This document shows, piece by piece, positions 718 through 46,361 of a stretch of 64,000 nucleotides of DNA. The translations under genes were made by a program, and so were the position numbers. The notes under the pieces are model-generated. The model ran no database searches. It saw only the letters and a list, made by a program, of their open reading frames with translations, and had not been told where the DNA came from. The stretch's first letter is position 1. Every line of letters starts with the position of its first letter. The DNA comes from Spirochaetota bacterium (GTDB lineage: Bacteria; Spirochaetota; UBA4802; JAFGDQ01): NCBI GenBank assembly GCA_034190085.1, contig JAXHTS010000064.1:57383-121382 (forward strand). Reading direction: 5' to 3'.

Positions 718-3240
718 CTAGCCCAAACCTTGTATTGTCCTCTGTATGATGTTATCCTGCGTCTTGCGGCTGATATCCACAAAATGCGCGCTGTAGCCTG
801 CCACGCGAACGATCACCTCCTGATACTGCTCGGGATCCTTCTGTGCTGCCCTGAGGGTCGCATCATCTATCATGTTGAACTGAACGTGATCCAATCCCAG
901 ATCAGCCCAGGTCTTCATGTAGGACTTCCATAATTGATACCCCTTCTCTCCGGAGAGCTGAGCTGGTGATAACCTTTGATTCAACAAAAATGACCTGCCA
1001 TCGCTTACATGATCTATCTTTCCGCAAGATTTCAGCACCGCAGTAGGTCCTTTTTTATCGAGCCCTGGACCTGGCGATATACCACCATCATACAGCGCAT
1101 CTCCCAATCTTCTACCATTGGGAAGTGCATGCACCATATTAGCAAAATGAATATTCCCACTCACATTCTCAGGCAATGCAGGCCATGTGTTACCAGATGG
1201 ACATCTTACCTCCCTCGAATGCCTAGCCACCTCCCTAAGACATCTTACCATAATCTCATCCACATAATCTTCGTCATTGCCCCACTTGGGAGCATTCTTC
1301 ACAAAGTCCATGCGCATCCCTTCCTTGCCTTCCCAATCGTTCTCCAATGCCTCAACAAGCTCTTTCATCGTATACTTCTTCTCATCAAAGATTAATCTCT
1401 TTACTGCCGCTAAGCTATCAGCATTCTCAGTCCATGTGAAGAAGGTAATCCAAGCATTGCCTCTCTCTATCGATGGGTCAACTGCGTCAAGACCACTCTC
1501 GATACTCTTCTCTGATATAGCCGAGAGAAATGGTCGGCCATAATATTCTGGACTCTTCACTCTACCACGATTTACTATTCGTGTTGCGAAATTCACAATC
1601 CACTCCATCTGCTTTACCCATGCCTGAAACAGTTCTTCAAAATCTGCAAATTTCCTGGCATCCCCTGTTTTGGGTCCCATCTGCATATTTATACATCTGT
1701 CAAAACCATTATGAAGAGCATACTCAATCATCTTAGATGTATTCAACGTAGCTGTTGCCATTCTAGCTGGTTGAAAACCATGCTTCGTAGCAGGGCATGG
1801 CGACATGCAGGCCTGGTGTACCCATGTTCTCATCTCCTCCAAGGGATGGCTGTGCCAGTGCATACCATTGGCAATTAACACCGGATCATTGCGTATGCTG
1901 GGATACCCCAATCCATGCCGTATGCACTCGAATACCTCCCTCATCACCTCATCTGACACCTGTGGATGCCATCTGAATCCAAAGGTAGGCCCTGATACAC
2001 GCACTAGCCTTGCAGCCTGCAAGAGTGCTATGGTCAGGTCATTGCATGCATCGCTTCCATCGAGTTTAACTCCGCCTAAAGTCCATATCCATGTACCGGC
2101 TATACCCTGAACCCCCTCAGACGCGAATCGTGGAGCATATCCTCCCACTTCATGGCAGCGAATCATAAACTCACCAACAAGATCAAGCGCCTCCTCCTTG
2201 GTTAGACATTTATCAATGTTTACATCTTGATTATAATATGGCCAATGATAATAATCAGGTCGAGATGGCCATGCCCCCTCTAAATCCTCAAATCTGGTCC
2301 ATATTTGTATAAAATGATCATATTGCAATGACTCCTGAAAAGTCCTCGGTAGTTTATTAGGCACCCTCTTACAGGTCTCCTCTATCCTTAAGAGTTCTTC
2401 CCTACGCCTTGGATCGGATTCAAAATTCTCAGCAACAATCTTTGCTAACCTAGCATATCTTTTCGACATCCTGATGCAGGCCTCAAGTATAATCTGCATG
2501 GCCTCCCAATTGGTCAACCTGTCATAGAGCGGAAGGATGTCCGGCCCAGGATTGCCGTCAATCCTTTCCTCAGCATCATCTATTTTTTCCTGTATCTCAT
2601 CTATTATGTCTTCAAATGCCCTCTTCCCTGTCATAAAATATTCATAGTCCTTACCGGCATAACCGAAACTACCACCAATAGGAAGCCCCCACATAACAAC
2701 AGTACTCATGAGTTTAACAGCCTCTTCACTGGAGAGTTCCCTAAACACCTTCCCAAGATTATCTCTTGGCCCCCAGTAGTTGTTGAGTTCAGCCATAGTC
2801 TCAAGCGATTCATCCTGAGGCTCAGGTATAATAACTGGGTCATTATATATCTCCTCATTAAGGAAGCTTGCTATGTCCGGATGCCACATAAGAGTATTTG
2901 GAAGACTCCCATAATATCCAACAAGCTGAGCATGATCAGTAATAAAGATTGTTATGTTATCAAAAACGTACGAAAGCGCCTTTGCCCTTCTCATAATTAT
3001 CGGCTCATTTTCGTTTTCTTTCCAGGCCTCTGTGAATAAGAGCGGTCTTTCAAGATCAACCTTGAGCCCTGGCTCATACATTCCCCCCTTTTTCCCTTTC
3101 TTCCAAACTGCTTTCCTGAGATAATCGAGTCTTTCGGATCTCTTCTTCTCTGCTACCCACCACCATTCCCTGCTCTTCTCAAGTTCCTTTAAACTTTTCT
3201 TTTTAAGTACTTCAGTAACTCTAAGTGCTTCTGGTTCCAT
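718..3240 (-). CDS. Glycyl radical enzyme, X-succinate synthase-like catalytic subunit (copy 1, distal end of array)
   Basis: 840 residues. Predicted to add a hydrocarbon radical to fumarate, giving a substituted succinate. The active-site loop at 478-493 reads CMSPCPATKHGFQPAR. Cys478 would carry the thiyl radical, and Arg493 (Cys+15) has the spacing of the fumarate-binding Arg of benzylsuccinate synthase. Trp597 in RGNAW is a candidate for the second fumarate contact. The glycyl loop RVAGYSAHF places Gly815 25 residues from the C-terminus. The N-terminus has the REWWWVAEKKR and DYLRKAVWKKG signature shared by all copies. Copy-specific pocket residues include WHPDIAS (119-125), Ile188 and EVGGYAPRFASEG (364-376). 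A GGGAGGT ribosome site precedes the ATG. This is the last gene of the array as transcribed, 103 bp after copy 2. The glycyl radical class is certain; the fumarate-adding role rests on motif spacing; the substrate is unknown. Confidence 0.85.
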   Translation of the reverse strand: MEPEALRVTEVLKKKSLKELEKSREWWWVAEKKRSERLDYLRKAVWKKGKKGGMYEPGLKVDLERPLLFTEAWKENENEPIIMRRAKALSYVFDNITIFITDHAQLVGYYGSLPNTLMWHPDIASFLNEEIYNDPVIIPEPQDESLETMAELNNYWGPRDNLGKVFRELSSEEAVKLMSTVVMWGLPIGGSFGYAGKDYEYFMTGKRAFEDIIDEIQEKIDDAEERIDGNPGPDILPLYDRLTNWEAMQIILEACIRMSKRYARLAKIVAENFESDPRRREELLRIEETCKRVPNKLPRTFQESLQYDHFIQIWTRFEDLEGAWPSRPDYYHWPYYNQDVNIDKCLTKEEALDLVGEFMIRCHEVGGYAPRFASEGVQGIAGTWIWTLGGVKLDGSDACNDLTIALLQAARLVRVSGPTFGFRWHPQVSDEVMREVFECIRHGLGYPSIRNDPVLIANGMHWHSHPLEEMRTWVHQACMSPCPATKHGFQPARMATATLNTSKMIEYALHNGFDRCINMQMGPKTGDARKFADFEELFQAWVKQMEWIVNFATRIVNRGRVKSPEYYGRPFLSAISEKSIESGLDAVDPSIERGNAWITFFTWTENADSLAAVKRLIFDEKKYTMKELVEALENDWEGKEGMRMDFVKNAPKWGNDEDYVDEIMVRCLREVARHSREVRCPSGNTWPALPENVSGNIHFANMVHALPNGRRLGDALYDGGISPGPGLDKKGPTAVLKSCGKIDHVSDGRSFLLNQRLSPAQLSGEKGYQLWKSYMKTWADLGLDHVQFNMIDDATLRAAQKDPEQYQEVIVRVAGYSAHFVDISRKTQDNIIQRTIQGLG

Positions 3241-3343
3241 TTACTTATACCTCCCTTCATTTTTTTAAATAAGTTTACAATTATAAATATAAAATTTTAT
3301 CTCAACAAAAAATCAATCACCTCCTTTAGCCGCATTTTTATAT

Positions 3344-5866: not shown

Positions 5867-5913
5867 TTAACTAACCTCCCATTAGTGTAATATTTAATAA
5901 ATCTAATCCCTAT

Positions 5914-5950
5914 AAAAAAACCCCCACAATAACTTATAGTAATGTGAGGG
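5914..5950 (-). terminator. Rho-independent terminator after copy 3
   Basis: Read on the minus strand, CCCTCACA pairs with TGTGGGGG (one G-U pair) with an inner partly paired AT stem, followed directly by seven Ts (5920 down to 5914). It lies 177 bases after the copy 3 stop and 48 bases before the copy 2 start, so it should end or attenuate the transcript within the array. Confidence 0.75.
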
Positions 5951-6126
5951 TATATTGTCTTACATTTCTAACATTCACTACCTCATAATAGTCAAAGCTG
6001 CTCATTGTCCTTGGCAACACACTGCAGAGTATTGACTTAAATGAATAGTAATTAACTTAAAGGTATTGGTAGTCAGCTAATTTTATTATAGATATGTATA
6101 TTAGATTCAAATCGTCTCCCTGACAT

Positions 6127-8649: not shown

Positions 8650-8949
8650 TCTATACCTCCTAATTGTTAATTAAGTTAAATATAATCTCACTCTCAATGC
8701 AATTAAAGCTGCTTTATAATCCTTACTATAGTATTGTTATGAGAAACGCTTAGAACCATACTATAAGCGTATTTATTGAAAATATTGTTTCTATTGGCTA
8801 TTTCTCAATAAACTAATAAATCAATAGGAGTATAATATTTCATTTACTTTAACAGTTCAATATAAGAAAATGAGTATTGAGACCTTTCAATATGCTCAAA
8901 TTCAGAACTTTAAACAAATATTTATATACTCAATATCAGTATTAAAGGA
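8650..8949. other. 300-bp AT-rich spacer between copy 3 and the dctP-like gene
   Basis: No gene seen. It contains an 8-bp inverted repeat, TATAGTAT (8727-8734) and ATACTATA (8758-8765), about 80-115 bases upstream of the copy 3 start, which could be an operator or hairpin. I see no convincing terminator or consensus promoter. Confidence 0.4.
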
Positions 8950-9990
8950 TTACTTCTTTTTTTTGCGGTAATTTTTCAGATGACCTATAATCTCATCCAA
9001 CATTGATTTTGGATACTCCTTCCCAATCATCTTATCCCAAATCGGCCTAGTTCTCTTCTTGAATACTTCAACCTCTTCAGGTGTCATCTTCACCTCAGTA
9101 CACCCGTAGTTGATCATACCCTTCAGTGCATTAGTGCTCATTGGGCGAATCTCTTTATCTATCATTGGACCATACTTCTTCTTAAAAAAATTCTCAATAG
9201 TAGTAGTATACCCCTTAGGAACACTATTCCATGCCTTCATTGATACAACAAGAAAATAGGGATCAAATCTAATAGGAACTGGATTTATGTACTTTGTAAT
9301 CGTATATAACTGTGAGGCTAACCACCAGATTGATGGCGCTACCGCTGCATCTACCACACCGGCTCTCATAGAGGGGACAACCTCAGGCACATTCACTGGG
9401 ATTGGACTTGCTCCAAGTGCCTTCAATACCTCAGCCTCTAGTGGACCATGCCAGGATAAAACCTTGCTCTTCTTGAATTCTTCAGGTGTTTTTAAGGGAT
9501 ATTTTGATGAATAAAAATGCTCGAAATCCAGCTCAATAAACCATAGTATTTTAAAACCATTCTTCTCAGCAATCTTATTGAGTTTAGGTCTCATCTTCTC
9601 TCTGATATAGCGTACTTCCCCCCAATCCTGAAAGAGGAATGGCAGCTCAAATACTGATACACCAGGACATACCATAGCATTGGCTGTGCCTGAAATTCCA
9701 GCCCCCTGAAGTTGGCCTATCCTCATTTTGGTTACATAATCCTCTTCATCTCCCATTATACCACCCATATACCAGAGAAATTTCAATTCCCCATCAGTAT
9801 TTCTTAAGATATCCCCAGTCAAATCAACGGTTAAAACAGATATAAATTTTATTGTATCCTGCCCTAGGGTAGCGAATTTCCATGTATACTTTGGTTTCTT
9901 CCCAGCGACTAGCATTGATAGGCAAAAGCCAACAATAAACAAACCAAACAAAATACCTACTAAAAAACGTACTCTCCTCCTCAATTTCAT
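8950..9990 (-). CDS. TRAP-type (DctP family) periplasmic solute-binding protein
   Basis: 346 residues. An N-terminal Arg-rich stretch is followed by one hydrophobic segment (about 9-28, VRFLVGILFGLFIVGF), a signal peptide or anchor that takes the protein to the periplasm. The body has the DctP layout: a YTWKFATLGQDT first strand, a GQLQGAGISG turn, FELPFLFQDW, and a central GASPIPVNVPEVVPSMRAGVVDA region that matches the family's substrate-loop segment. TRAP receptors capture organic acids for DctQ/DctM permeases. Neither permease subunit is in the window, so this is an orphan receptor here. It sits inside the seven-gene enzyme array, between copies 4 and 3. A plausible but unproven ligand is a dicarboxylate such as fumarate, or a hydrocarbon-derived acid. 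The basic C-terminal tail (YRKKKK) is unusual. Confidence 0.82.
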   Translation of the reverse strand: MKLRRRVRFLVGILFGLFIVGFCLSMLVAGKKPKYTWKFATLGQDTIKFISVLTVDLTGDILRNTDGELKFLWYMGGIMGDEEDYVTKMRIGQLQGAGISGTANAMVCPGVSVFELPFLFQDWGEVRYIREKMRPKLNKIAEKNGFKILWFIELDFEHFYSSKYPLKTPEEFKKSKVLSWHGPLEAEVLKALGASPIPVNVPEVVPSMRAGVVDAAVAPSIWWLASQLYTITKYINPVPIRFDPYFLVVSMKAWNSVPKGYTTTIENFFKKKYGPMIDKEIRPMSTNALKGMINYGCTEVKMTPEEVEVFKKRTRPIWDKMIGKEYPKSMLDEIIGHLKNYRKKKK

Positions 9991-10298
9991 TTAAAAACTC
10001 CTATAATGCTAATATTTAATACATTCGTATCTCAAAGTAAAAAGTGATTAACAAACCAAAAAAAAATAGTTTTACATTTATCTTTTCAAATTGAAATTAT
10101 TATAACAACTCTCATCATGATTCCATATAACGTGCAAAATCACATCAAACACCTTACTCCATCGTTTTCAACACAATGGAGCAAGGCATTTGATAAATCC
10201 AACTCAATGACTCCCTGTAATATTTGTCACCAGAGATAAAGTTGTCACAATGATATTATAGAATACCCCCACTACTTGAAACCTTAAACTATATTTTT
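9991..10298. other. 308-bp spacer between the dctP-like gene and copy 4
   Basis: No gene seen. It contains the strong hairpin listed at 10152-10186. On the minus strand a TATAAT box occurs near 10253-10258, but without a good -35 box at normal spacing, so I do not call a promoter. Confidence 0.4.
10152..10186 (-). terminator. Intercistronic hairpin between copy 4 and dctP
   Basis: Eleven-base arms (10152-10162 and 10176-10186) pair fully on the minus strand with one G-T wobble, around a 13-nt loop. Only a weak T-rich tail follows, so it could be a terminator, an attenuator or a stem that stabilises the upstream transcript. Confidence 0.5.
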
Positions 10299-12812
10299 CT
10301 ATCCTAGTCCTTGTATCGTTCTCTGTATAATATTATCCTGTGTCTTGCGGCTTATATCCACAAAATGCGCGCTATAGCCAGCCACACGAACAATCACTTC
10401 CTGGTATTGCTCAGGATCCTTCTGCGCTGCACGTAGAGTGGCATCATCTACCATATTGAACTGTACATGATCTATTCCAAGGTCAGCCCATGTCCTCATG
10501 TAGGATTTCCATAACTGATAACCCTTCTCTCCAGAGAGCTGAGTTGGAGACAACCTCTGATTCAACAAAAATGCCCTTCCATCACTTATGTGGTCGATCT
10601 TCCCACATGACTTCAACACCGCTGTTGGTCCCTTCTTATCCAATCCGGGACCTGGCGAAATGCCACCATCGTATAGCGCATCCCCCAACTTCCTCCCATT
10701 AGGCAACGCATGAACCAGATTCGCAAAATGTATGTTCCCGCTTACATTCTCTGGAAGCGCTGGCCATGGATTACCAGATGGACACTTGATCTCCCATGAA
10801 TGTCTCGCAACTTCCCTTAAACAACGTAGCATAATATCATCCGCATAATCATCATCATTACCCCACTTGGGTGCATTCTTTACAAAATCCAACCGCATAT
10901 CCTCTTTACCTTCCCAGTTAGTCTCCAATGCATCAACAAGCTCTTCCATCGTATACTTCTTCTCATCAAAGACCAGTTTCTTTACTGCTGTCAAGCTATC
11001 AGCATTCTCTGCCCATGTGAAAAAGGTCATCCAGCAATTACCCCTCTCACCATCTGGCTCCATTACATCAACACCCATATCTATTGATCTCTCAGTAATG
11101 GATGACAGGAAAGGTCGCCCATAATTCTGTGGACTCTTCACCCTTCCATGGTTCATTATCCGCACTCCAAAATTGCACAACCACTCCATCTGTTTTACCC
11201 AGGCCTGAAAAAGGTCTTCAAAGTCAGTAAACATCCTGGCATCTCCAGACTCAGGGCCGACCTGCATCTTTACAACATGATCAAATCCATTATGCAGGGC
11301 ATATTCAACCATCTTGGCACAATTCAGCGTAACGGCCATTCGACATGGTTGTGTGCCATGCTTTGTCGTTGGACATGGAGACATGCAGGCTTGCTGTACC
11401 CAGGTCCTCATCTCATCCAGAGGATGGCCATGCCAGTGCATTCCGTTAGATATGCAAACTGGATCATTTCTTATGCTAGGATATCCCAATCCATGCCGTA
11501 TGCACTCGAATACTTCTCTCATCACCTCATCCTTTACCTGGGGATGCCACCTGAAAGCAAAGGTAGGATTGGATACACGAACCAGCCTTGCAGCCTGTAA
11601 AAATGCAATAGTAAGATCATTGCATGCATCAGTGCCGTCAACATTTATGCCACCGAGTGTCCATGCCCAACTGCCAACCACACCCTGAAGCGCCTCTGAT
11701 CCAGCCTGTGGAAGATAATGTCCAGTCTCATATGCACGAATTAGAAACTCCCCAATAAGATCAATCGCTTCATCCTTTGTTATATTCTTTTCTATGTTGA
11801 CATCCTTATTATAGTAGGGCCAGTGATAGTAATCAGGACGAGCCGGCCATGCCCCTTCCAAGTCCTCCAACCTAGCCCATGTCTGTATAAAAAAGTCAAA
11901 CTGAAGTGAATCCTGAAATGTCTTTGGGGCTTTCCCAGGCACTCGCTCACATGTTTCAGCTACCTGTAAAAGCTCCTCTTTGCGCTTTGGATCCGATTCA
12001 AAATTCTCTGCTATTATCCTAGCAAGCCTTGAGTATCTCTTCGCATATCTTATGCAAGCCTCCAGGATGATCTGCATAGCCTCCCAATTGGATAGTTTGT
12101 CATAGAGCGGAAGAATATCCGGTCCTGGATTGCCGTCTATCACTTCCTCCGCCTCATCTATTCGATCCTGTATCTCATCAATGACGTCCTCAAATCCCCT
12201 CTTGCCTGTCATTATATACTCATAGTCCTTGCCTGAATAACCAAAGCTGCCTCCAAATGGAGCGCTCCACATCAGAACCATGGTCATAAACTTGATGGCT
12301 TCCTCTGCTGATAAATCCCTTAACACCTTACCCATGCTATCCCTTGTGTTCCAGTAGTTGTTTAAGTCTGACATAGTCTTCAGCGATTCTTCCTCAGGTT
12401 CAGGTATTATCATAGGATCATTGTATATCTCCTCATTAAACAAACTCGCAGCATCATTATACCACATAAGAGTGTTGGGATGACTACCCAGATAACCCAT
12501 AATCTGAGCATGATCTGTGATAAAAATGGTTATATTATCAAAGACATGCGATAAAGCCTTTGCCCTTCTCATCATAATTGGATCATTCTCATTCTCCTTC
12601 CAACTCTCTGTAAAGTGCAATGGTCTCTCAAGATCTACCTTGAGTCCAGGCTCATACATACCTCCCTTTTTTCCCTTCTTCCAGATCGCTTTCCTCAAAT
12701 AATCGAGTCTATCAGATCTACTCCTCTCTGCCACCCACCACCATTCCCTATCCTTCTCAAGTTCCTCAAGACTCTTCTTAATTGAAACTTCACTAACCTT
12801 CCTTGTTGACAT
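10299..12812 (-). CDS. Glycyl radical enzyme, X-succinate synthase-like catalytic subunit (copy 4, most divergent active site)
   Basis: 837 residues, three fewer than its relatives: two are missing at the N-terminus and one just after the fumarate-site Arg (RMAVTLNCAKM, where others have RMASTTLNCSKM or similar). Key residues shift to Cys476, Cys480, Arg491 and Gly812. Further unique changes are SAPFGG before the GKDYEY motif (Phe at the position equal to 188), ETGHYLPQAGSEA, QGVVGSWAWTLGG, DGERGNCWMTF (a Cys beside the conserved Trp) and HFANLV near the C-terminal domain. These all lie in or near segments that line the barrel in related enzymes, so copy 4 is the best candidate for a distinct substrate. 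GGGAGGT precedes the ATG. It follows copy 5 by 83 bp and ends before a hairpin, so it closes the first four-gene block. Confidence 0.85.
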   Translation of the reverse strand: MSTRKVSEVSIKKSLEELEKDREWWWVAERSRSDRLDYLRKAIWKKGKKGGMYEPGLKVDLERPLHFTESWKENENDPIMMRRAKALSHVFDNITIFITDHAQIMGYLGSHPNTLMWYNDAASLFNEEIYNDPMIIPEPEEESLKTMSDLNNYWNTRDSMGKVLRDLSAEEAIKFMTMVLMWSAPFGGSFGYSGKDYEYIMTGKRGFEDVIDEIQDRIDEAEEVIDGNPGPDILPLYDKLSNWEAMQIILEACIRYAKRYSRLARIIAENFESDPKRKEELLQVAETCERVPGKAPKTFQDSLQFDFFIQTWARLEDLEGAWPARPDYYHWPYYNKDVNIEKNITKDEAIDLIGEFLIRAYETGHYLPQAGSEALQGVVGSWAWTLGGINVDGTDACNDLTIAFLQAARLVRVSNPTFAFRWHPQVKDEVMREVFECIRHGLGYPSIRNDPVCISNGMHWHGHPLDEMRTWVQQACMSPCPTTKHGTQPCRMAVTLNCAKMVEYALHNGFDHVVKMQVGPESGDARMFTDFEDLFQAWVKQMEWLCNFGVRIMNHGRVKSPQNYGRPFLSSITERSIDMGVDVMEPDGERGNCWMTFFTWAENADSLTAVKKLVFDEKKYTMEELVDALETNWEGKEDMRLDFVKNAPKWGNDDDYADDIMLRCLREVARHSWEIKCPSGNPWPALPENVSGNIHFANLVHALPNGRKLGDALYDGGISPGPGLDKKGPTAVLKSCGKIDHISDGRAFLLNQRLSPTQLSGEKGYQLWKSYMRTWADLGIDHVQFNMVDDATLRAAQKDPEQYQEVIVRVAGYSAHFVDISRKTQDNIIQRTIQGLG

Positions 12813-12895
12813 ATGTCTAACCTCCCATTTTATTATTAAATCATAGTTATATGTTATTAGAGGCCCTAATGAATAGGACCTCTAAATTATTTATA

Positions 12896-15418
12896 CTAGC
12901 CAATACCCTGAACTGTTCTCTGTATAATATTATCCTGCGTCTTGCGGCTTATATCTACAAAATGCGCGCTGTATCCAGCCACACGAACGATCACCTCCTG
13001 ATACTGCTCAGGGTCCTTCTGCGCTGCGCGAAGAGTGGCATCATCTACCATATTGAACTGTACATGATCTATTCCAAGATCAGCCCAGGTACTCATGTAT
13101 GACTTCCATAACTGATAGCCCTTCTCTCCTGAAAGCTGGGTCGGTGATAAACGCTGATTCAACAGAAACGCCCTTCCATCGCTTATATGATCTATCTTCC
13201 CGCATGACTTCAATACCGCTGTTGGGCCCTTCTTGTCCAACCCAGGACCTGGTGATATGCCCCCATCGTATAGAGCATCCCCCAATTTCCTGCCATTGGG
13301 CAGCGCATGCACCATATTGGAGAAGTGAATATTACCACTCACATTCTCAGGCAATGCAGGCCAAGTGTTGCCCGATGGACACCTTATCTCATGTGAATGC
13401 CTCGCAACCTCTTTTAAACAACGCACCATTATATCATCCACATAATCATCATCATTACCCCACTTAGGAGCGTTCTTCACAAAATCCAACCTCATATCCT
13501 CCTTACCCTCCCAATTAGTCTCAAGGGCAGTAATAAGCTCATCCATAGTGTATTTCTTATCATCAAAAACCAATTTCTTTACCGCTGCTAAACTATCTGC
13601 ATTCTCTGTCCAGGTAAAGAATGTTATCCAGGCATTCCCTCGCTCTAAAGAGGGCTCTAAGGCATCCATGCCGGTTTCTATCGACTTCTCCGAAATTGAA
13701 GATAGGAATGGACGAGTGAAATTTGAAGGACTCTTATATCTTGCCCGATTGATTACTCTCGTTGCAAAATTCGTTACCCACTCCATCTGCTTTACCCATG
13801 CCTCGAAAAGCTCTTCAAAATCCTTAAACTTACGCGCATCACCCGTCTTAGGCCCCATCTGCATCTTGATGCAATTATCGAATCCATTATGCAGAGCATA
13901 TTCAACCATCTTTGAAGTATTAAGTGTTGTTGAGGCCATTCGGCATGGCTGAGAGCCGTGCTTTGTCGTGGGGCATGGAGACATGCAGGCCTGGTGTACC
14001 CATGTCCTCATCTCCTCTAAGGGATGGCCGTGCCAATGCATGCCGTTTGCAATCAAAACAGGATCATTCCGTATGCTGGGATAACCCAATCCATGACGTA
14101 TGCATTCGAATACCTCTCGCCATACCTCATCCTTTACCTTCGGATGCCATCTGAATCCAAAGGTAGGATTTGCCACACGCACAAGCCTCGCAGCCTGCAT
14201 AAAGGCAATGGTGAGATCATTGCATGCGTCAGTGCCATCCTGGTTTACTCCGCCAAGAGTCCATACCCAGGTAGCCTGTATACCCTGAAGAGCCTCAGCT
14301 GCAAAATTCGGCAAATAACCCGCCAATTCATAGCTTCGAATCAAAAATTCGCCAACTAAATCGATTGCCTCATCTTTCGTGATATTCTTCTCAACATTAA
14401 CATCACGATCATAGCTTCGCCAATGGTAGTAATCAGGACGGGCAGGCCATGCACCCTCTACCTCCTCAAATCTACTCCATACCTGAATAAAATGATCATA
14501 CTGCAACGATTCCTGAAGTGTGTTTGCAGGCTTCCCTGGCACCCTCTCACAGCACTCAGCAATCTTAAGCAGTTCTTCTTTTCGCTTTGGATCAGATTCA
14601 TAATTTTCTGCTATTATTCGAGCAAGCCTGGAATACCTCTTCGCATATCTTATGCATGCCTCAAGCGCAATCTGCATGGCCTCCCAAGTAGACAGCCTGT
14701 CATATAACGGAAGAATATCCGGCCCTGGATTGCCGTCTATTTTTTCCTCTGCCTCATCAATCCGATCCTGTATCTCATCTATAATGTCTTCAAATCCTCT
14801 CTTGCCTGTCATCAGGTACTCATAATCTTTACCTGAATAACCAAAGCTTCCACCAACAGGAAGACCCCACATGATTACACTGGACATCATTTTAACCGCT
14901 TCTTCGCTGGATAACTCTCTAAACACCTTACCCAGACTATCCCTTGATCCCCAATAGTTATTGAGTTCAGCAATAGCCTTTAACGCTTCCTCCTGAGGTT
15001 CCGGGATTACCATTGGATCATTATAAATCTCTTCATTTAGAAAACTCGCCAATTCACTATTCCAATTAAGTGTATTCGGAAGGCTGCCAAGATATCCCAT
15101 AATCTGTGCCTGATCTGTAATAAAGATTGTGATGTTATCAAGAACATGCGCAAATGACTTCGCTCTTCTCATCGAAAGAGACTCATTCTCATTCTGCTTC
15201 CATGCTTCCGTAAATATTTGTGATCTCTCAAGATCAATCTTCACACCAGGTTCATACATTCCACCCTTTCTTCCCTTTTTCCATACTCCCTTTCTCAGAT
15301 AATCAAGTCTTGGAGATCGCTTTTTTTCAGCGACCCACCACCACTCCTTATCCTGTTCAAGCTCTTCAATACTCTTTTTCGATGTTGCTGCACCAATTTT
15401 GTCAGCTTCTGATGACAT
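12896..15418 (-). CDS. Glycyl radical enzyme, X-succinate synthase-like catalytic subunit (copy 5, recent duplicate of copy 6)
   Basis: 840 residues; Cys478, Cys482, Arg493 and Gly815 are intact. It shares with copy 6 the start MSSEA, the segment LDYLRKGVWKKGRKGG, NWN at 118-120, an Arg after the conserved YYHW motif (YYHWRSYDRDVN, where others have Pro), ELAGYLPNFAAEA (364-376) and RARYKSPSNFTRPFLS. The two proteins differ at few positions (Val188 here, Ile in copy 6; IHFSNM here, IHFSTM there), and the short spacers before and after them also resemble each other, so the duplication copied about 2.6 kb including the spacer. AGGAGGAA precedes the ATG. It lies 83 bp after copy 6 and 83 bp before copy 4, probably on one transcript. 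Confidence 0.85.
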   Translation of the reverse strand: MSSEADKIGAATSKKSIEELEQDKEWWWVAEKKRSPRLDYLRKGVWKKGRKGGMYEPGVKIDLERSQIFTEAWKQNENESLSMRRAKSFAHVLDNITIFITDQAQIMGYLGSLPNTLNWNSELASFLNEEIYNDPMVIPEPQEEALKAIAELNNYWGSRDSLGKVFRELSSEEAVKMMSSVIMWGLPVGGSFGYSGKDYEYLMTGKRGFEDIIDEIQDRIDEAEEKIDGNPGPDILPLYDRLSTWEAMQIALEACIRYAKRYSRLARIIAENYESDPKRKEELLKIAECCERVPGKPANTLQESLQYDHFIQVWSRFEEVEGAWPARPDYYHWRSYDRDVNVEKNITKDEAIDLVGEFLIRSYELAGYLPNFAAEALQGIQATWVWTLGGVNQDGTDACNDLTIAFMQAARLVRVANPTFGFRWHPKVKDEVWREVFECIRHGLGYPSIRNDPVLIANGMHWHGHPLEEMRTWVHQACMSPCPTTKHGSQPCRMASTTLNTSKMVEYALHNGFDNCIKMQMGPKTGDARKFKDFEELFEAWVKQMEWVTNFATRVINRARYKSPSNFTRPFLSSISEKSIETGMDALEPSLERGNAWITFFTWTENADSLAAVKKLVFDDKKYTMDELITALETNWEGKEDMRLDFVKNAPKWGNDDDYVDDIMVRCLKEVARHSHEIRCPSGNTWPALPENVSGNIHFSNMVHALPNGRKLGDALYDGGISPGPGLDKKGPTAVLKSCGKIDHISDGRAFLLNQRLSPTQLSGEKGYQLWKSYMSTWADLGIDHVQFNMVDDATLRAAQKDPEQYQEVIVRVAGYSAHFVDISRKTQDNIIQRTVQGIG

Positions 15419-15501
15419 TTTCTCTTCCTCCTAATATTCATTAATATTCAAATCATCCTATATTGACAGACTCCCTAAATAAAATCCCCTAAAAAAAATC
15501 A

Positions 15502-18024
15502 TTAGCCCAATCCTTGTATTGTTCTCTGTATAATATTATCCTGCGTCTTGCGGCTTATATCCACAAAATGCGCGCTGTAACCGGCCACACGAACAATAAC
15601 CTCTTGATACTGCTCAGGGTCCTTCTGCGCTGCACGAAGGGTGGCATCGTCAACCATATTAAATTGTACATGATCTATCCCGAGATCAGCCCAGCTACTC
15701 ATGTATGACTTCCATAACTGATAGCCCTTCTCTCCTGAAAGCTGAGTCGGAGATAACCTTTGATTCAACAGAAACGCCCTTCCGTCGCTTATATGATCTA
15801 TCTTCCCGCATGACTTCAATACCGCTGTTGGGCCCTTCTTGTCCAATCCTGGACCTGGTGATATGCCCCCATCGTATAGCGCATCACCCAGCTTCCTGCC
15901 ATTGGGAAGCGCGTGAACCATAGTAGAAAAATGGATATTACCACTCACATTCTCAGGCAATGCAGGCCATGTGTTGCCGGAGGGACACCTTATCTCATGT
16001 GAGTGCCTCGCAACCTCTTTTAAACAACGCACCATTATATTATCCACATAATCATCATCATTGCCCCACTTCGGCCCATGCTTTACAAAGTTCAACCTCA
16101 TATCCTCTTTGCCCTCCCAGTTAGTCTCAAGGGCAGTGATAAGCTCATCCATAGTGTATTTCTTCTCATCAAAAACCAATTTCTTTACCGCTGCTAAACT
16201 ATCAGCATTTTCAGTCCAGGTAAAGAATGTTATCCAGGCATTCCCTCGCTCTAAAGAGGGCTCTAAGGCATCTAAACCGGTTTCCACCGACTTCTCAGAA
16301 ATTCCAGATAAAAATGGACGAGTAAAATTTGAAGGACTCTTATATCTTGCCCGATTGATTACTCTCGTTGCAAAATTCGTTATCCACTCCATCTGCTTTA
16401 CCCATGCCTCGAAAAGCTCTTCAAAATCTTTAAACTTACGCGCATCACCAGTCTTAGGACCCATCTGCATCTTGATGCAATTATCGAATCCATTATGCAG
16501 GGCATATTCAACCATCTTGGAGCAATTCAGAGTTGTTGAGGCCATTCGACATGGCTGAGAGCCGTGCTTTGTCGTGGGGCAAGGAGACATGCAGGCCTGG
16601 TGCACCCATGTCCTCATCTCCTCTAAGGGATGGCCATGCCAATGCATGCCGTTTGCAATCAAAACAGGATCATTCCGTATGCTGGGATAACCCAATCCAT
16701 GACGTATGCATTCAAATACCTCTCGCCATACCTCATCCTTCACCTTTGGATGCCATCTGAATCCAAAGGTAGGATTTGCCACGCGCACCAATCTTGCTGC
16801 TTGCATAAAGGCAATGGTGAGATCATTGCATGCGTCAGTGCCATCCTGGTTTACTCCACCAAGGGTCCATACCCAGGTGGCCTGTATACCCTGAAGAGCC
16901 TCAGCAGCGAAATTTGGCATATAGCCCGCCAATTCATAGCTTCGAATCAAAAACTCGCCAACTAAATCGATTGCCTCATCCTTCGTAATATTCTTCTCAA
17001 CATTAACATCACGATCATAGCATCGCCAATGGTAGTAATCAGGACGAGCCGGCCACGCACCCTCTGCATCCTCGAATCTACTCCATACTTGAATAAAGTG
17101 ATCATACTGCAGCGATTCCTGAAATGTGTTCGCAGGCTTCCCTGGCACCCTCTCACAGCACTCAGTAATCTTGAGCAGTTCTTCCTTTCGCTTTGGATCA
17201 GATTCATAATTTTCTGCTATTATTCGGGCAAGCCTGGAATACCTCTTCGCATATCTTATGCATGCCTCAAGCCCAATCTGCATGGCCTCCCAATTCGATA
17301 GCCTGTCATAGAGTGGGAGAATATCCGGCCCCGGATTGCCATCTATCTTCTCCTCTGCCTCGTCTATTCTTTCCTGTATCTCATCAATGATGTCCTCAAA
17401 TCCCCTTTTGCCAGTCATCAGGTATTCATAATCTTTACCAGCATATCCAAAACTGCCTCCAATAGGAACACCCCACATAAGCACTGTACTCATCATCTTC
17501 ACAGCCTCTTCGCTGGAAAACTCCCTAAAAACCTTACCAAGACTATCTCTTGATCCCCAATAGTTATTAATCTCAGCAATGGTCTTTAACGACTCCTCCT
17601 GAGGTTCGGGGATTACAATCGGATCGTTATATATCTCTTCATTTAAAAAGCTTGCCAATTCACAATTCCAATTAAGAGTATTTGGAAGGCTACCAAGATA
17701 CCCCATAATCTGTGCCTGATCTGTAATAAAGATTGTGATGTTATCAAGAACATGCGCAAATGACTTCGCTCTTCTCATCGAAAGTGAATCGTTCTCATTC
17801 TGTTCCCAAGCCTCTGTAAATAATTGCGGCCTCTCAAGATCGACCTTCACGCCAGGTTCATACATTCCGCCCTTTCTTCCCTTCTTCCATACCCCCTTTC
17901 TTAGATAATCGAGTCTTGGAGATCGCTTTTTTTCAGCGACCCACCACCACTCCTTATCCTGCTCAAGCTCTTGAATACTCTTTTTCGATATTGCTACACT
18001 ATTTTTTTCAGCTTCTGATGACAT
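15502..18024 (-). CDS. Glycyl radical enzyme, X-succinate synthase-like catalytic subunit (copy 6)
   Basis: 840 residues with the full catalytic set (Cys478, Cys482, Arg493, Trp597 region, Gly815). Near-twin of copy 5 with the same Arg-for-Pro change in YYHWRCYDRDVN. Private differences include EQNENDSLSMRR early on, NWNCELAS at 118-125, Ile188, VKHGPKWGN in place of VKNAPKWGN, and YMSSWADLG near 774-782. Two close copies side by side point to recent tandem duplication, possibly for gene dosage. AGGAGGAA is the ribosome site. It follows copy 7 by 81 bp. Confidence 0.85.
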   Translation of the reverse strand: MSSEAEKNSVAISKKSIQELEQDKEWWWVAEKKRSPRLDYLRKGVWKKGRKGGMYEPGVKVDLERPQLFTEAWEQNENDSLSMRRAKSFAHVLDNITIFITDQAQIMGYLGSLPNTLNWNCELASFLNEEIYNDPIVIPEPQEESLKTIAEINNYWGSRDSLGKVFREFSSEEAVKMMSTVLMWGVPIGGSFGYAGKDYEYLMTGKRGFEDIIDEIQERIDEAEEKIDGNPGPDILPLYDRLSNWEAMQIGLEACIRYAKRYSRLARIIAENYESDPKRKEELLKITECCERVPGKPANTFQESLQYDHFIQVWSRFEDAEGAWPARPDYYHWRCYDRDVNVEKNITKDEAIDLVGEFLIRSYELAGYMPNFAAEALQGIQATWVWTLGGVNQDGTDACNDLTIAFMQAARLVRVANPTFGFRWHPKVKDEVWREVFECIRHGLGYPSIRNDPVLIANGMHWHGHPLEEMRTWVHQACMSPCPTTKHGSQPCRMASTTLNCSKMVEYALHNGFDNCIKMQMGPKTGDARKFKDFEELFEAWVKQMEWITNFATRVINRARYKSPSNFTRPFLSGISEKSVETGLDALEPSLERGNAWITFFTWTENADSLAAVKKLVFDEKKYTMDELITALETNWEGKEDMRLNFVKHGPKWGNDDDYVDNIMVRCLKEVARHSHEIRCPSGNTWPALPENVSGNIHFSTMVHALPNGRKLGDALYDGGISPGPGLDKKGPTAVLKSCGKIDHISDGRAFLLNQRLSPTQLSGEKGYQLWKSYMSSWADLGIDHVQFNMVDDATLRAAQKDPEQYQEVIVRVAGYSAHFVDISRKTQDNIIQRTIQGLG

Positions 18025-18105
18025 TTATTCTTCCTCCTAATTATTAATATTTTTTTCATTATATAATAATAGTCTCCCTAAACAAAACACCCTAAAAATA
18101 GAACA

Positions 18106-20628
18106 TTAACCCAATCCTTGTATTGTTCTCTGTATAATATTATCCTGCGTCTTGCGGCTTATATCCACAAAATGCGCGCTATAACCAGCCACTCGGACAA
18201 TAACCTCCTGATACTGTTCAGGATCCTTCTGCGCTGCACGTAGAGTGGCATCATCTACCATATTGAACTGTACATGATCAAGTCCTAAATCCGACCAGGT
18301 TTTCATATATGATTTCCACAATTGATAGCCCTTTTCGCCAGAAAGCTGGGTCGGTGAAAGTCGCTGATTCAACAAAAACGCCCTTCCGTCGCTTACATGA
18401 TCTATCTTTCCGCATGACTTTAATACCGCTGTGGGCCCCTTCTTGTCCAATCCAGGACCAGGCGATATGCCGCCATCATATAGCGCATCTCCTAATTTCC
18501 TGCCATTAGGCAGCGCGTGCACCATATTGGAAAAATGTATATTACCGCTCACATTCTCAGGCAATGCAGGCCATGTGTTGCCCGATGGACACCTTATCTC
18601 ATGTGAATGCCTCGCAACCTCCCTCAAACAGCGCACCATAATATCATCCACATAATCATCATCATTCCCCCACTTAGGCCCATTCTTGACAAAATCAATG
18701 CGCATCTGCTCCTTCCCTTCCCAATTGCTCTCAAGAGCGTCAATCAACTCCGTCATGGTGTATCGCTTCTCATCGAAGACCAATTTTTTTACAGCAGCTA
18801 GACTATCAGCATTCTCCACCCATGTAAAGAATGTAACCCATGCATTGCCCCTCTCAAGCGACGGGTCAACCGCATCTAGACCGCTCTCAACAGACCTCTC
18901 GGAAATAGCAGAGAGGAAGGGACGACCGTAAAACTCCGGACTCTTCACCCTACCGCGGTTTACTATTCTTGTGCCAAAATTCATCAACCACTCCATCTGC
19001 TTCACCCATGCCTGGAATAGCTCTTCAAAGTCTGTAAAGGTCCTAGCATCGCCAGTCTTGGGTCCCATCTGCATCTTGATGCAATTATCATACCCATTAT
19101 GCAATGCATACTCAACCATCTTGGAGGTATTCAACGTCGCTGAAGCCATGCGAGCTGGTTGAGCGCCATGCTTTGTTGTGGGGCAAGGCGACATGCAGGC
19201 CTGATGTACCCATGTCCTCATCTCCTCTAAGGGATGACCATGCCAATGCATGCCATTAGCGATCAAAACAGGATCGTTCCGTATGCTGGGATAACCCAAT
19301 CCGTGTCTGATGCACTCAAAGACCTCTCTCCAAACCTCATCCTGTACCTTCGGATGCCATCTGAATCCAAAGGTAGGATTTGCCACACGCACCAATCTTG
19401 CGGTCTGCATAAATGCAATAGTAAGATCATTGCATGCATCAGTGCCGTCCTGGTTTACTCCACCAAGAGTCCACACCCAGGTGGCCTGTATGCCCTGAAG
19501 AGCCTCAGCCCCGATCCTTGGCATATAACCTGCCAACTCAGCGGAACGGATCATGAACTCCCCAATAAAATCGATCGCCTCGTCACGCGTAATGTTCCCT
19601 TCTATATTTACATCCTTATTATAATATGGCCAATGATAGTAATCAGGACGACATGGCCACGCGCCCTCTCCATCCTCATATCGTGACCAGACCTGAATGA
19701 AATGATCATATTGAAGCGATTCCTGAAAACTCCTTGGAGGTTTTGCAGGAACCCTATTACAGGACTCGGAAAGGCGCAAGAGTTCATCTTTTCGTTTTGG
19801 ATCAGATTCGAAGTTCTCAGCGACTATTCGCGCTAATCTGGAATATCTCTTTGCCATCCTGATGCAGGCCTCAAGTATAATCTGCATAGCCTCCCAATTG
19901 GCTAGCCTGTCATAGAGCGGAAGGATATCCGGCCCTGGATTGCCGTCTATTGTTTCCTCTGCATCATCAATCCTCTCCTGTATCTCATCTATGATATCCT
20001 CAAATCCTCGTTGACCTGTCATAAAGTACTCATAGTCTTTCCCAGCATAACCGAAGCTGCCGCCAGAAGGGATACCCCACATTAAGACTGTACTCATCAC
20101 CTTTACTGCCTCTTCACTTGACAACTCCCTGAACACCTTGCCAATGTTATCCCTTGTACCCCAGTAATTATTGATCTCCGCCATAGTCTTTAGAGATTCC
20201 TCCTGAGGCTCTGGTATAACCATTGGGTCATTGTATATCTCCTCATTTAGAAAGCTTGCCCTATCAACGTACCACATGAGTGTATTGGGAAGACTCCCAA
20301 GATAGCCCACAATCTGAGCATAATCCGTTATATGTATAGTAATATTATCTAATATATGCGCAACGGATTTTGCCCTCTTCATCATAATTGGATCATTCTC
20401 GTTCTCCTTCCAAGCCTCTGTAAATAGAAGTGGTCTCTCTAGATCAACTTTTACGCCTGGTTCATACATTCCACCCTTTTTACCCTTTTTCCAAACCGCT
20501 TTCCTCAAATAGTCGAGCCTTTTAGACCTCTTCTTCTCAGCTACCCACCACCATTCCCGACTCTTCTCAAGGTCTTCAACAGTCTTATTCTGAGATTGAT
20601 AACTAGCATGTTCTAATCTTGATTCCAT
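18106..20628 (-). CDS. Glycyl radical enzyme, X-succinate synthase-like catalytic subunit (copy 7, first of array)
   Basis: 840 residues and the promoter-proximal enzyme, 78 bp after tetR. Cys478, Cys482, Arg493 and Gly815 are intact. The N-terminal half resembles copies 1-3 (REWWWVAEKKRSKRLDY, LRKAVWKKGKKGG), while ELAGYMPRIGAEALQGIQATW (from 364) and HFSNMV near the C-terminus resemble copies 5 and 6, so the gene looks mosaic. Distinctive sites are WYVDRAS (119-125, with an Arg) and Ser188, the smallest residue at that position among the seven. A GGGGAGGT ribosome site precedes the ATG. As in every copy, no activase or small subunit gene lies in the flanking spacer. Being first, it should be the copy most tightly coupled to TetR control. 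Confidence 0.85.
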   Translation of the reverse strand: MESRLEHASYQSQNKTVEDLEKSREWWWVAEKKRSKRLDYLRKAVWKKGKKGGMYEPGVKVDLERPLLFTEAWKENENDPIMMKRAKSVAHILDNITIHITDYAQIVGYLGSLPNTLMWYVDRASFLNEEIYNDPMVIPEPQEESLKTMAEINNYWGTRDNIGKVFRELSSEEAVKVMSTVLMWGIPSGGSFGYAGKDYEYFMTGQRGFEDIIDEIQERIDDAEETIDGNPGPDILPLYDRLANWEAMQIILEACIRMAKRYSRLARIVAENFESDPKRKDELLRLSESCNRVPAKPPRSFQESLQYDHFIQVWSRYEDGEGAWPCRPDYYHWPYYNKDVNIEGNITRDEAIDFIGEFMIRSAELAGYMPRIGAEALQGIQATWVWTLGGVNQDGTDACNDLTIAFMQTARLVRVANPTFGFRWHPKVQDEVWREVFECIRHGLGYPSIRNDPVLIANGMHWHGHPLEEMRTWVHQACMSPCPTTKHGAQPARMASATLNTSKMVEYALHNGYDNCIKMQMGPKTGDARTFTDFEELFQAWVKQMEWLMNFGTRIVNRGRVKSPEFYGRPFLSAISERSVESGLDAVDPSLERGNAWVTFFTWVENADSLAAVKKLVFDEKRYTMTELIDALESNWEGKEQMRIDFVKNGPKWGNDDDYVDDIMVRCLREVARHSHEIRCPSGNTWPALPENVSGNIHFSNMVHALPNGRKLGDALYDGGISPGPGLDKKGPTAVLKSCGKIDHVSDGRAFLLNQRLSPTQLSGEKGYQLWKSYMKTWSDLGLDHVQFNMVDDATLRAAQKDPEQYQEVIVRVAGYSAHFVDISRKTQDNIIQRTIQGLG

Positions 20629-26769: not shown

Positions 26770-27558
26770 TTATATCACCTTTGCTTCATTTCTTAATTTG
26801 TTCACCAATGTTGCTGCAGCAGTCTTCGCATCTCCTTCAATAATCTCTGCTTTATGTTCTGATACTGGGATGAACATTTTAATAAATTCTGTTTTTGATC
26901 CATCCTTTCCAACCTCTGAAATTCCTAGATCTGCAGCATTCATAACATCCAATTTCTTCTTCTTTGCCTTCATAATTCCAGGTAGTGTTGGATATCTTGG
27001 TTGATTGATACCTGACTGAATGGAAAGTACCGCTGGCAAACTCATTTCAATAACCTCATTTAAACCACCCTCAAGTTCTCTGTTTACAGTAAGTGATTTA
27101 TTATCAGAGCCAATCTCAACCTTAACAACATTTGTACAATGAGGCATATTCATCATGTCAGCCATCATAACACCTGTTAAAGCTGACTGATTATCCTCAG
27201 ACATAACACCAGTTAATACAAGATCCACATCTCCAATCTTTTCGATAGCCTTATTGAGTGCTGAAGCAACCACATAACTATCCCCAGCATCTATCTCTGG
27301 ATCATTGACATGGATACCCCACTGTGCTCCCATTGCAAAAGCCTGTCTAATGTCTTTGGTTATTCTGTCTGGGCCAGCAGATACGATGATAACCTCACCA
27401 TCTAGTCTCTCTTTAATCTGCAGCGCTTCCTCTACGGCATACTCATCGAAATCATTCATCTTGAAAGCAATCTGGGATTCATCTACCCTGCTCTCATCAA
27501 CAATCGTAAATTTTGATTCCATATCTGGAACTTCTTTTATACAGACAACTATTTTCAT
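26770..27558 (-). CDS. etfB: Electron transfer flavoprotein, beta subunit
   Basis: 262 residues. The beta signature VNRELEGGLNEVIEMSLPAV is intact at about 160-180, preceded by DLVLTGVMSEDNQSALTGVM, the stretch that contacts AMP or FAD in the family. The N-terminus MKIVVCIKEVPD is typical. First gene of the etfBA pair; its own promoter is visible at 27625-27652. In bifurcating ETFs the beta subunit carries extra FAD contacts; this sequence alone does not settle whether it is the simple or the bifurcating type. Confidence 0.95.
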   Translation of the reverse strand: MKIVVCIKEVPDMESKFTIVDESRVDESQIAFKMNDFDEYAVEEALQIKERLDGEVIIVSAGPDRITKDIRQAFAMGAQWGIHVNDPEIDAGDSYVVASALNKAIEKIGDVDLVLTGVMSEDNQSALTGVMMADMMNMPHCTNVVKVEIGSDNKSLTVNRELEGGLNEVIEMSLPAVLSIQSGINQPRYPTLPGIMKAKKKKLDVMNAADLGISEVGKDGSKTEFIKMFIPVSEHKAEIIEGDAKTAAATLVNKLRNEAKVI

Positions 27559-37761: not shown

Positions 37762-37781
37762 ATCTATTACCTCCTTAAATA

Positions 37782-45074: not shown

Positions 45075-45088
45075 AATAGGATTGAACA

Positions 45089-46360: not shown

Positions 46361-46361
46361 G

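What the first reader, a model, noticed from the sequence alone, without database searches (positions are those of the whole stretch)
718..20628. Seven-gene tandem array of X-succinate synthase-like glycyl radical enzymes
Seven intact 837-840-residue paralogues lie head to tail with a period of about 2.6 kb. Every copy has the Cys-Met-Ser-Pro loop, an Arg at Cys+15 and the C-terminal glycyl loop. Known bss/ass/nms loci that I recall carry one or two catalytic genes with dedicated small-subunit and activase genes. A seven-member array looks like a substrate-range arsenal for anaerobic hydrocarbon activation, possibly a previously undescribed arrangement.
Basis: partly seen in the sequence, partly recalled or inferred. 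Interest (0 to 1): 0.95.

Follow-up and report, generated by a model that had tools for sequence, protein, structure and literature searches.

The report
Thirty alkane-attacking enzymes, one helper set
This stretch of a Spirochaetota genome holds seven intact, long-diverged genes of the alkane-type alkylsuccinate synthase family in one row, part of at least 30 such genes in the genome beside a single detected gene for one of the enzyme's small subunits, and together they would likely let one bacterium attack many different alkanes without oxygen.

Summary
In detail: seven intact 837-840-residue glycyl radical enzymes lie on the minus strand at 718-20628, each with the Cys loop, an Arg at Cys+15 and the Gly loop. 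A TRAP solute-binding gene (8950-9990) splits the row 3+4. They are alkane-type alpha subunits (AssA/MasD), not BssA: inside the AssA clade, with MASS-specific active-site residues. The array is part of something larger. The host, a Spirochaetota by its ValS, has 25 intact AssA-clade genes, at least 30 in all; at E<=1e-150 it gives 33 matches against 0-11 in 19 other genomes. One gamma-subunit gene, one canonical activase beside a second one, one close delta and five beta genes were found, none in the window. At least 14 TRAP binding proteins, all without the Arg of solved relatives, accompany the arrays. Best reading: a shared core serving many interchangeable alpha subunits. Different substrates per copy are inferred, not shown. 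Aromatic substrates are unsupported.

The parts
718..3240 (-). W1: alkane-type X-succinate synthase alpha subunit (AssA/MasD-like), 840 aa
3344..5866 (-). W2: same family, 840 aa
6127..8649 (-). W3: same family, 840 aa
8950..9990 (-). TRAP DctP solute-binding protein (346 aa) without permease genes beside it; splits the array; one of at least 14 paralogues in the genome; Leu where two solved relatives have Arg
10299..12812 (-). W4: same alpha family, 837 aa
12896..15418 (-). W5: same alpha family, 840 aa (94.6% to W6, the only young pair among the seven)
15502..18024 (-). W6: same alpha family, 840 aa
18106..20628 (-). W7: same alpha family, 840 aa
20707..21315 (-). TetR-family regulator, same strand, 78 bp upstream of W7
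   Evidence: regulation of the row is inferred
25803..26759 (-). Electron transfer flavoprotein alpha; possible downstream use, linkage only
26770..27558 (-). Electron transfer flavoprotein domain protein (beta by position); as above
36550..41246 (-). Thiolase-type (36550-37761), HMG-CoA-synthase-like (37782-39239) and acyl-CoA-ligase-like (39390-41246) genes; possible acyl-CoA processing, linkage only
57450..60095 (+). Valyl-tRNA synthetase used to place the contig in Spirochaetota

Best explanation
The seven genes encode catalytic alpha subunits of the alkane-type X-succinate synthase family (AssA/MasD), and they most likely work as interchangeable alpha subunits that draw on one unlinked set of helper proteins to add different alkanes to fumarate. 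SHOWN: family and subclass; intact catalytic residues; at least 30 AssA-clade genes in one Spirochaetota genome, in two separate clades (18 and 7 intact genes), plus a deeper third clade; one gamma gene, one canonical activase with a second beside it, one close delta and five beta genes detected, none of them in the seven-gene row; operons in other genomes that keep these parts together. INFERRED: each alpha pairs with the common gamma, delta and a beta; the one activase installs the glycyl radical on all of them; the thiyl radical at Cys takes a hydrogen from an alkane held in the elongated MASS-type pocket and the alkyl radical adds to fumarate bound by Arg; the alkylsuccinates are then CoA-activated, rearranged by the multiplied B12 mutases and oxidised, and fumarate is remade by succinate dehydrogenase. 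UNTESTED: that the copies differ in substrate.
For: Family and subclass: W7 scores 1357.8 bits to MasD against 485.8 to BssA; Foldseek puts 9o8u first, TM 0.90 (model mean pLDDT 75.2); tree with BssA outside, own clade A 18 rows (98), clade B 7 (99), clade C 3 (100). Residues: over the 25 intact copies W185, Y194, C477, R492 and F600 are 25/25, T598 and E690 24/25; their roles come from PMC12358834. Multiplicity: 33 matches at E<=1e-150 against 0-11 in 19 other genomes. Single core: activase 61% at C35 with a second at 42% beside it, gamma 65% at C35 as the only hit at E<=10, delta 68% at C50, beta x5, an own beta matching MasB in the PDB; order delta'-AE1-AE2-beta-gamma-alpha-delta in L037 and L039 (beta last in L045), while C35 has delta'-AE1-AE2-gamma and no alpha. 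The seven are kept by purifying selection at nearly saturated synonymous divergence. The Gly-radical domain, which faces activase, delta and beta, differs 0.26 times as much as the whole protein in the seven and 0.50 times in seven non-own controls. Downstream: 8 MM-CoA-mutase-type genes, 5 of them 54-57% identical to a mutase in an ass locus elsewhere; SdhA and SdhB-Rieske on C66 near two beta genes, two class III CoA-transferases just upstream of a C64 alpha pair.
Against: No activity or expression data. The first-shell pocket residues named in the paper are identical in the seven, so different substrates are not demonstrated; variation lies in neighbouring segments, and the uneven pattern is present in non-own AssA too. 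Segment 168-189 is even less divergent in the seven than in the controls (ratio 1.57 against 1.93 and 1.73). One AE1-type activase per genome is usual elsewhere, so sharing is new only in degree. The genome is a 96%-complete draft in 86 contigs with breaks inside arrays; missed gamma, delta or activase genes cannot be ruled out, and weaker delta-like hits exist on C45, C35, C30 and C1. Conservation of the Gly-radical domain may partly be gene conversion (pS falls to about 0.53 in the last windows).
Confidence: 0.68

Rival explanations
1. Redundant isoenzymes: the copies all take the same narrow range of alkanes and are kept because different arrays are expressed under different conditions or to raise dosage.
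For: Published pocket residues are invariant in 7 of 7 window copies; two arrays have a TetR-like gene beside them (window 20707-21315; L063:7781-8359, the latter judged from its sequence, not from a library hit).
Against: Dosage is normally served by near-identical copies; here 20 of 21 window pairs have pS 0.59-0.73 and protein identity 78.6-85%, and clade B changes F192 to A, G or S in 7 of 7 copies.
Confidence: 0.2
2. The alphas add something other than plain n-alkanes to fumarate (cyclic or branched alkanes, alkyl side chains, other hydrophobic compounds), so the range is real but not n-alkane chain length.
For: Only one alkyl-type enzyme has a structure in the PDB search (9o8u); own copies differ from it by a third of residues, and clade C lacks W185.
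Against: The closest characterised relative is an n-alkane enzyme; all first-shell MASS residues tested are kept in the window copies.
Confidence: 0.12
3. Aromatic or mixed range as the first reader suggested (toluene, alkylbenzenes, methylnaphthalene).
For: General X-succinate synthase chemistry is shared; C52a, outside the window, has Gln at the BSS Gln707 position.
Against: 0 of 7 window copies have BSS residues at S199, N615, I617 or Q707; F600 and W185 occlude toluene binding as seen in BSS according to PMC12358834; BssA falls outside the clade.
Confidence: 0.03
4. Binning or assembly artefact: arrays from another phylum wrongly put in a Spirochaetota bin.
For: None of 58 relatives searched has a close match; breaks lie inside arrays.
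Against: The seven alphas and a Spirochaetota-type ValS are on the same 121-kb contig; 18 intact own copies on four contigs form a clade without outside rows.
Confidence: 0.03

Closest known systems
(1-Methylalkyl)succinate synthase MasD of Azoarcus sp. HxN1 (PDB 9o8u; PMC12358834: abstract, first three of seven parts of the text, section 9 and first part of section 10 read)
   Same: 64-67% identical over the alpha subunit; same fumarate Arg, Glu690, Thr598, Phe600, Tyr194, Trp185
   Different: One mas cluster with its own beta, gamma, delta and activase genes; here at least 30 alphas with most helpers elsewhere and single
Desulfatibacillum alkenivorans DSM 16219 (L038; G063)
   Same: 70-72% identical AssA; AE, beta, gamma and delta homologues
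   Different: Two AssA, each near its own AE1-type activase; beta, gamma and delta linked at L038, not examined at the second locus
CSMAG_2994 Deltaproteobacteria MAG (L042, L053, L054; G067)
   Same: Second-highest copy number found: 11 matches, three on one contig, one AE1-type activase
   Different: A third of the number, another AssA subclade, another phylum by record title
CSMAG_2901 MAG (L034; G059)
   Same: Nearest relatives among the named records, 80-81%, two alphas in tandem with a beta
   Different: Two tandem copies plus one 49% relative; titled Deltaproteobacteria
Ca. A. nitratireducens (PMC10811727, passages read)
   Same: Several AssA in one genome: three of 852 aa
   Different: Identities of 91 and 97% given between them; the paper's modelling and expression favour two as active
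Atribacteria JS1 fumarate-addition operons (PMC6776118, passages read)
   Same: TRAP transporter genes inside fumarate-addition operons
   Different: A separate deep cluster of the enzyme; the paper assigns the transporter to C4-dicarboxylates, likely succinate and fumarate
Benzylsuccinate synthase BssA/TutD (PDB 4pkc and others)
   Same: Glycyl radical fold, Cys and Gly loops, Arg508 equivalent
   Different: 35-37% identical; Ser199, Asn615, Ile617, Gln707 absent in all seven

Membership tests
Alkane-type X-succinate synthase alpha (AssA/MasD) | Glycyl radical enzyme domains PF02901 + PF01228 | tested here: met
   7 of 7
Alkane-type X-succinate synthase alpha (AssA/MasD) | Catalytic Cys (C477) and radical Gly in VAGYSAHF | tested here: met
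   25 of 25 intact copies
Alkane-type X-succinate synthase alpha (AssA/MasD) | Fumarate-binding Arg (R492 = R508 of BSS) | tested here: met
   25 of 25 intact copies
Alkane-type X-succinate synthase alpha (AssA/MasD) | MASS pocket residues W185, Y194, T598, F600, E690 | tested here: met
   7 of 7 for all five; over 25 copies T598 and E690 24/25
Alkane-type X-succinate synthase alpha (AssA/MasD) | Placement with AssA/MasD, BssA outside | tested here: met
   (quick ML tree, SH-aLRT only; NmsA, IbsA and HbsA not included)
Alkane-type X-succinate synthase alpha (AssA/MasD) | Accessory beta, gamma, delta subunits and activase encoded in the genome | tested here: met
   but unlinked to the seven genes
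Alkane-type X-succinate synthase alpha (AssA/MasD) | Alkane + fumarate to alkylsuccinate activity | not testable with these tools
   needs expression or culture
Benzylsuccinate synthase | BSS pocket residues S199, N615, I617, Q707 | tested here: not met
   0 of 7
Other NCBIfam glycyl radical enzymes (sulfopropanediol dehydratase, PFL2-3, HypD, CutC and others) | Curated NCBIfam cut-off | tested here: not met
   best 441.7 bits against a cut-off of 1000
TRAP DctP solute-binding protein (window 8950-9990) | PF03480 domain | tested here: met
   136.8 bits
TRAP DctP carboxylate-binding receptor | Arg at the K-x-R position of the solved relatives 4p47 and 8t9t | tested here: not met
   Leu in 14 of 14 own genes read and in 17 of 17 entries without outside source; 0 Arg in 103 other listed homologues. 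That this Arg anchors the ligand carboxylate is recalled, from no call

The most novel reading that the evidence does not exclude
A plug-in hydrocarbon system: one radical-installing core (one activase pair, one gamma, one main delta) charges at least 30 interchangeable alpha subunits, while a TRAP permease is shared by 14 or more interchangeable receptors that lack the carboxylate-anchoring Arg and would bind neutral hydrocarbons or their derivatives. Each receptor and each alpha would read a different alkane of a crude-oil mixture, making this Spirochaetota a generalist anaerobic oil degrader.
Probability: 0.27. Interest if true: 0.95.

Novelty: new variant of a known kind. Interest (0 to 1): 0.86.

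Why it matters
How anaerobes cope with the many alkanes in crude oil is open: is one promiscuous enzyme enough, or are many specialised ones needed? A genome with 25 intact alkane-type alpha subunits and single detected genes for several helpers makes this directly testable, because the alphas can be compared with the same partners. It would also bring anaerobic alkane activation to Spirochaetota: none of the papers listed by my searches shows this in title or abstract start (one paper's passages read), and the one related title seen, in a reference list, calls Spirochaetes of hydrocarbon-contaminated habitats fermentative necromass recyclers. It would show that activase and accessory subunits can be largely uncoupled from the catalytic genes. 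For enzyme engineers it is a natural library of alkane-activating radical enzymes on one scaffold.

Tried and rejected
Rejected: that the organism lacks helper genes (they are on other contigs). Thought unlikely: that the second activase on C35 serves only the distant clade-C enzymes; a second activase stands beside the first in 5 of 10 other loci with an activase. Rejected for the seven: recent amplification; only W5/W6 is young (pairs outside the window were not tested one by one). Rejected as main reading: binning artefact. Toned down: conservation of the Gly-radical domain as proof of shared partners; non-own AssA show the same trend more weakly. Toned down: TRAP genes as a novelty of this genome; Atribacteria operons have them. 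No TRAP receptor of this kind was found in the 21 stretches with AssA loci from other genomes, which reach at most 10 kb on each side, so the linkage is not general.

Led nowhere: a 16S rRNA search of the own genome found none. A tree with NmsA, IbsA and HbsA was not made because no named sequences were at hand; BssA and MasD stood in. Literature searches for many assA copies or for Spirochaetota with assA gave no such report in the listings: 5,495 papers, 20 listed; 6; 14; 63, 25 listed; the term also caught words such as assay; 1; 1, passages read; 115, 20 listed. Passages of PMC7673041 were read (more than one assA variant in most of its assA-bearing MAGs); PMC4703814 and PMC4681840 were searched for copies, paralog, Spirochaet and duplicat with no occurrence. 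The library holds open-licence papers only.

Rows dropped before counts: the residue counts use 25 intact AssA-clade copies and leave out two interrupted copies (C66, C52) and the pieces at contig ends (C18, C52, C66, C67, C56, C79); clade C is reported apart. The tree leaves out those and the loci L046-L048, L050-L052 and L054, and uses 38 non-own homologues chosen by me, among them every non-own hit from P0008 to P0034; 412 proteins passed the threshold and 120 were listed. The non-own TRAP count covers the 120 listed of 197. The 17 entries counted as own are those listed without an outside source; four of them (contigs of 41,582, 42,859 and 3,665 bases) I did not see in the genome itself. 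A receptor on C52 read is not among them.
Full report
OBSERVATION. The minus strand of 718-20628 holds seven complete reading frames of 837-840 codons. All seven hit the PFL-like and Gly_radical Pfam domains and stay far below the curated NCBIfam cut-offs for the named glycyl radical enzymes (best 441.7 bits against 1000 for sulfopropanediol dehydratase). Each has C-M-S-P, Arg at Cys+15 and VAGYSAHF. The row is split 3+4 by a TRAP DctP solute-binding gene at 8950-9990, and a TetR gene at 20707-21315 lies 78 bp upstream of it on the same strand. No homologue of the D. alkenivorans small subunits (E<=1e-3) or activase (E<=1e-12) lies in the window.

WHAT THE ENZYMES ARE. For W7 the best solved relative is MasD, the alpha subunit of (1-methylalkyl)succinate synthase, with 1357.8 bits; BssA follows with 485.8; for W4 the order is the same. 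Identity over the 25 intact genome copies is 64-67% to MasD and 35-37% to BssA. In a tree of 86 proteins BssA lies outside the AssA/MasD clade that contains all seven (quick search, SH-aLRT only, long outgroup branches flagged). The 2025 structure paper (PMC12358834; section 9 and part of section 10) names residues that set the alkane enzyme apart from benzylsuccinate synthase: Glu690 for Gln707, Thr598 for Asn615, Phe600 near Ile617, Tyr194 for Ser199, and Trp185 gating the channel, with Arg492 binding fumarate as Arg508 does. All seven window copies have every one of them. An AlphaFold model of W7 has 9o8u as its first Foldseek match (TM 0.90), but the Cys loop is poorly predicted, so nothing beyond the fold is built on it.

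THE GENOME BEHIND THE WINDOW. The window is part of contig C64 of a 4.27-Mb, 96%-complete draft genome in 86 contigs. Searching that genome with W7 gave 43 matches, 33 of them at E<=1e-150. Read out, these are 25 intact AssA-clade genes, two interrupted copies (C66, C52), and three amino-terminal (C18, C52, C66) plus three carboxy-terminal pieces (C67, C56, C79) at contig ends. The near-identical ends of C52 and C66 part beyond about 300 bases, and those of C56 and C79 just after the stop codon, so they are different places; the six pieces need at least three more genes: at least 30 in all. A third, deeper clade at 47-48% identity adds three intact genes and one decayed copy. In 19 other genomes reached through AssA loci, the same search at E<=1e-150 found none in one, 1-5 matches in seventeen and 11 in one. 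In 58 relatives of the own genome (two of the same family, none of the same genus) no match exceeded 351 bits.

HOST. The valyl-tRNA synthetase at 57450-60095 has as its best outside hit a 'Spirochaetota bacterium' record (75% identity), is 72% identical in the two same-family genomes, and 50-55% in three of five AssA-bearing genomes titled Deltaproteobacteria, Desulfatibacillum or Dehalococcoidia (no match in the other two). The contig therefore belongs to a Spirochaetota. Clade A (18 own genes, including all seven, on C64, C66, C67 and C79) and clade B (7 own genes) are each own-genome-only in the tree; B is sister to three rows including a Dehalococcoidia MAG (L049), A to 16 rows including L034. 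Separate lateral gains followed by amplification inside this lineage are the simplest reading (inference).

THE HELPERS. In other genomes the order delta'-AE1-AE2-beta-gamma-alpha-delta is seen in L037 and L039; L045 has the beta last. Of ten other loci with an activase in the stretch held, five have the second one beside it. Subunit identities were checked against PDB entry 9o8u: an own beta to MasB, and the D. alkenivorans query proteins to MasC and MasE. In the own genome AE1 (61%) and AE2 (42% to the AE1 query, 63% to its counterpart in L049) stand together on C35 with a delta-like gene and the only gamma detected, without any alpha. A close delta lies on C50, with weaker delta-like hits on C45, C35, C30 and C1. 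Five beta genes lie next to alpha genes on C66 (two), C52, C56 and C67; the last is short, 95 codons. So alphas outnumber the gamma and the canonical activase about 30 to 1. One AE1-type activase per genome is common elsewhere: 15 of 18 genomes had a full-length match of at least 54% identity, one more a partial one, and only D. alkenivorans two. The principle of sharing is thus not new; its extent is.

EVOLUTION. Among the seven, 20 of 21 pairs have pS 0.59-0.73 and one (W5/W6) 0.32; dN/dS is 0.045-0.096. The copies are old and kept by purifying selection. The Gly-radical domain (678-839) is invariant at 144 of 162 positions in the seven; segment 356-383, which by the alignment holds the counterparts of BSS residues 384-391, at 8 of 28. 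Against seven non-own AssA of similar overall identity, the relative divergence of the domain is 0.26 versus 0.50, that of 356-383 is 2.32 versus 1.81, and that of 168-189 is 1.57 versus 1.93; the larger control of 14 gives 0.47, 1.47 and 1.73, and own clade B 0.36, 1.51 and 1.24. The pattern is a family trait, stronger here in the first two respects and weaker in the third. Clade B replaces Phe192, toward which the extended pocket reaches according to the paper, by Ala, Gly or Ser in 7 of 7. That is the clearest sign of different pockets, but it lies outside the window.

TRAP RECEPTORS. The gene that splits the array has 13 paralogues in the stretches that I read; one search lists 17 entries without outside source, 13 of them on contigs with glycyl radical enzyme genes and four on contigs that I did not identify, so 18 in all is likely. 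The eleven contigs with such enzymes are 14% of the genome, which makes 13 of 17 unlikely by chance (binomial 1e-8; tandem copies make this optimistic). On C4 they alternate with the clade-C enzymes. All have Leu where 4p47 and 8t9t have Arg, 14 of 14 and 17 of 17, and none of 103 other listed homologues has Arg, so this is a trait of the subfamily. A DctM permease lies near three of them on C66, next to a small gene of DctQ size that hit no family. Atribacteria fumarate-addition operons also contain TRAP genes (PMC6776118, passages), read there as C4-dicarboxylate transport. No such gene was found in the 21 stretches with AssA loci from other genomes.

PATHWAY. The genome has eight methylmalonyl-CoA-mutase-type genes, five of them 54-57% identical to a mutase in an ass locus elsewhere (L043). 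Two class III CoA-transferases stand just upstream of an alpha pair on C64, and SdhA, an SdhB fused to a Rieske domain and a cytochrome b stand near two beta genes on C66. These fit CoA activation, carbon-skeleton rearrangement and fumarate renewal (inference from the known alkane pathway).

VERDICT. The finding is real and larger than reported: an alkane-type X-succinate synthase family expanded to at least 30 catalytic genes around what looks like one shared helper set, in a phylum for which the listings of my searches show no such report. Substrate diversification is likely but untested.

Noticed in passing
L062:9987-14939 (own genome C66, beside beta and alpha genes): Succinate dehydrogenase flavoprotein followed by an iron-sulfur subunit fused to a Rieske domain, a cytochrome b and a small gene with a weak Sdh_cyt match: an unusual Sdh/Rieske-cytochrome b operon that may remake fumarate.
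   Followed up: partly
window 8950-9990; L056:4802-5839; L060:8180-9223; L062:361-1395; L073:10009-13510; L064:6597-7625; L069; L071: At least 14 TRAP solute-binding paralogues without the Arg of solved relatives, on contigs with glycyl radical enzyme arrays.
   Followed up: partly
L063:8602-11121 (C52a): One clade-B alpha has Gln for Glu690 and Ser for Thr598, i.e. a BSS-like Gln at the fumarate site in an otherwise alkane-type enzyme.
   Followed up: no
L069 and L071 (own genome C4, C45), L072 (C76): A third, deeper clade of fumarate-adder-like enzymes (47-48% to the window copies) without Trp185, alternating with TRAP receptors on C4; one decayed copy on C76.
   Followed up: partly
G067 (CSMAG_2994; L042, L053, L054): A second genome with 11 AssA matches, three on one contig, and one AE1-type activase: possibly an independent expansion.
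   Followed up: no
L103:8849-12600, L105:4250-7975, L108:9202-10965: Five mutase genes related to an ass-linked mutase, two pairs in tandem.
   Followed up: partly
L111:7838-8686 (own genome C30): AAA_5 (MoxR-like) ATPase 73% identical to a gene in the ass locus stretch L045.
   Followed up: no
window 44052-46997: Fused siroheme decarboxylase AhbA-AhbB with a NirJ/AhbC-type radical SAM gene and a siroheme-synthase N-terminal-type gene: alternative haem pathway.
   Followed up: no
L056:8647-19199 (C64) against window 10299-20628: The other four-gene array on C64 pairs in the tree with the window copies W4-W7 and lies on the opposite strand, suggesting an old inverted segmental duplication.
   Followed up: no
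C52 end and C66 start; C56 start and C79 start (own genome): Contig ends inside near-identical gene pieces (1 difference in the last 200 bases, 3 in the first 218), with different flanks: the assembly breaks at close repeats and hides further copies.
   Followed up: partly
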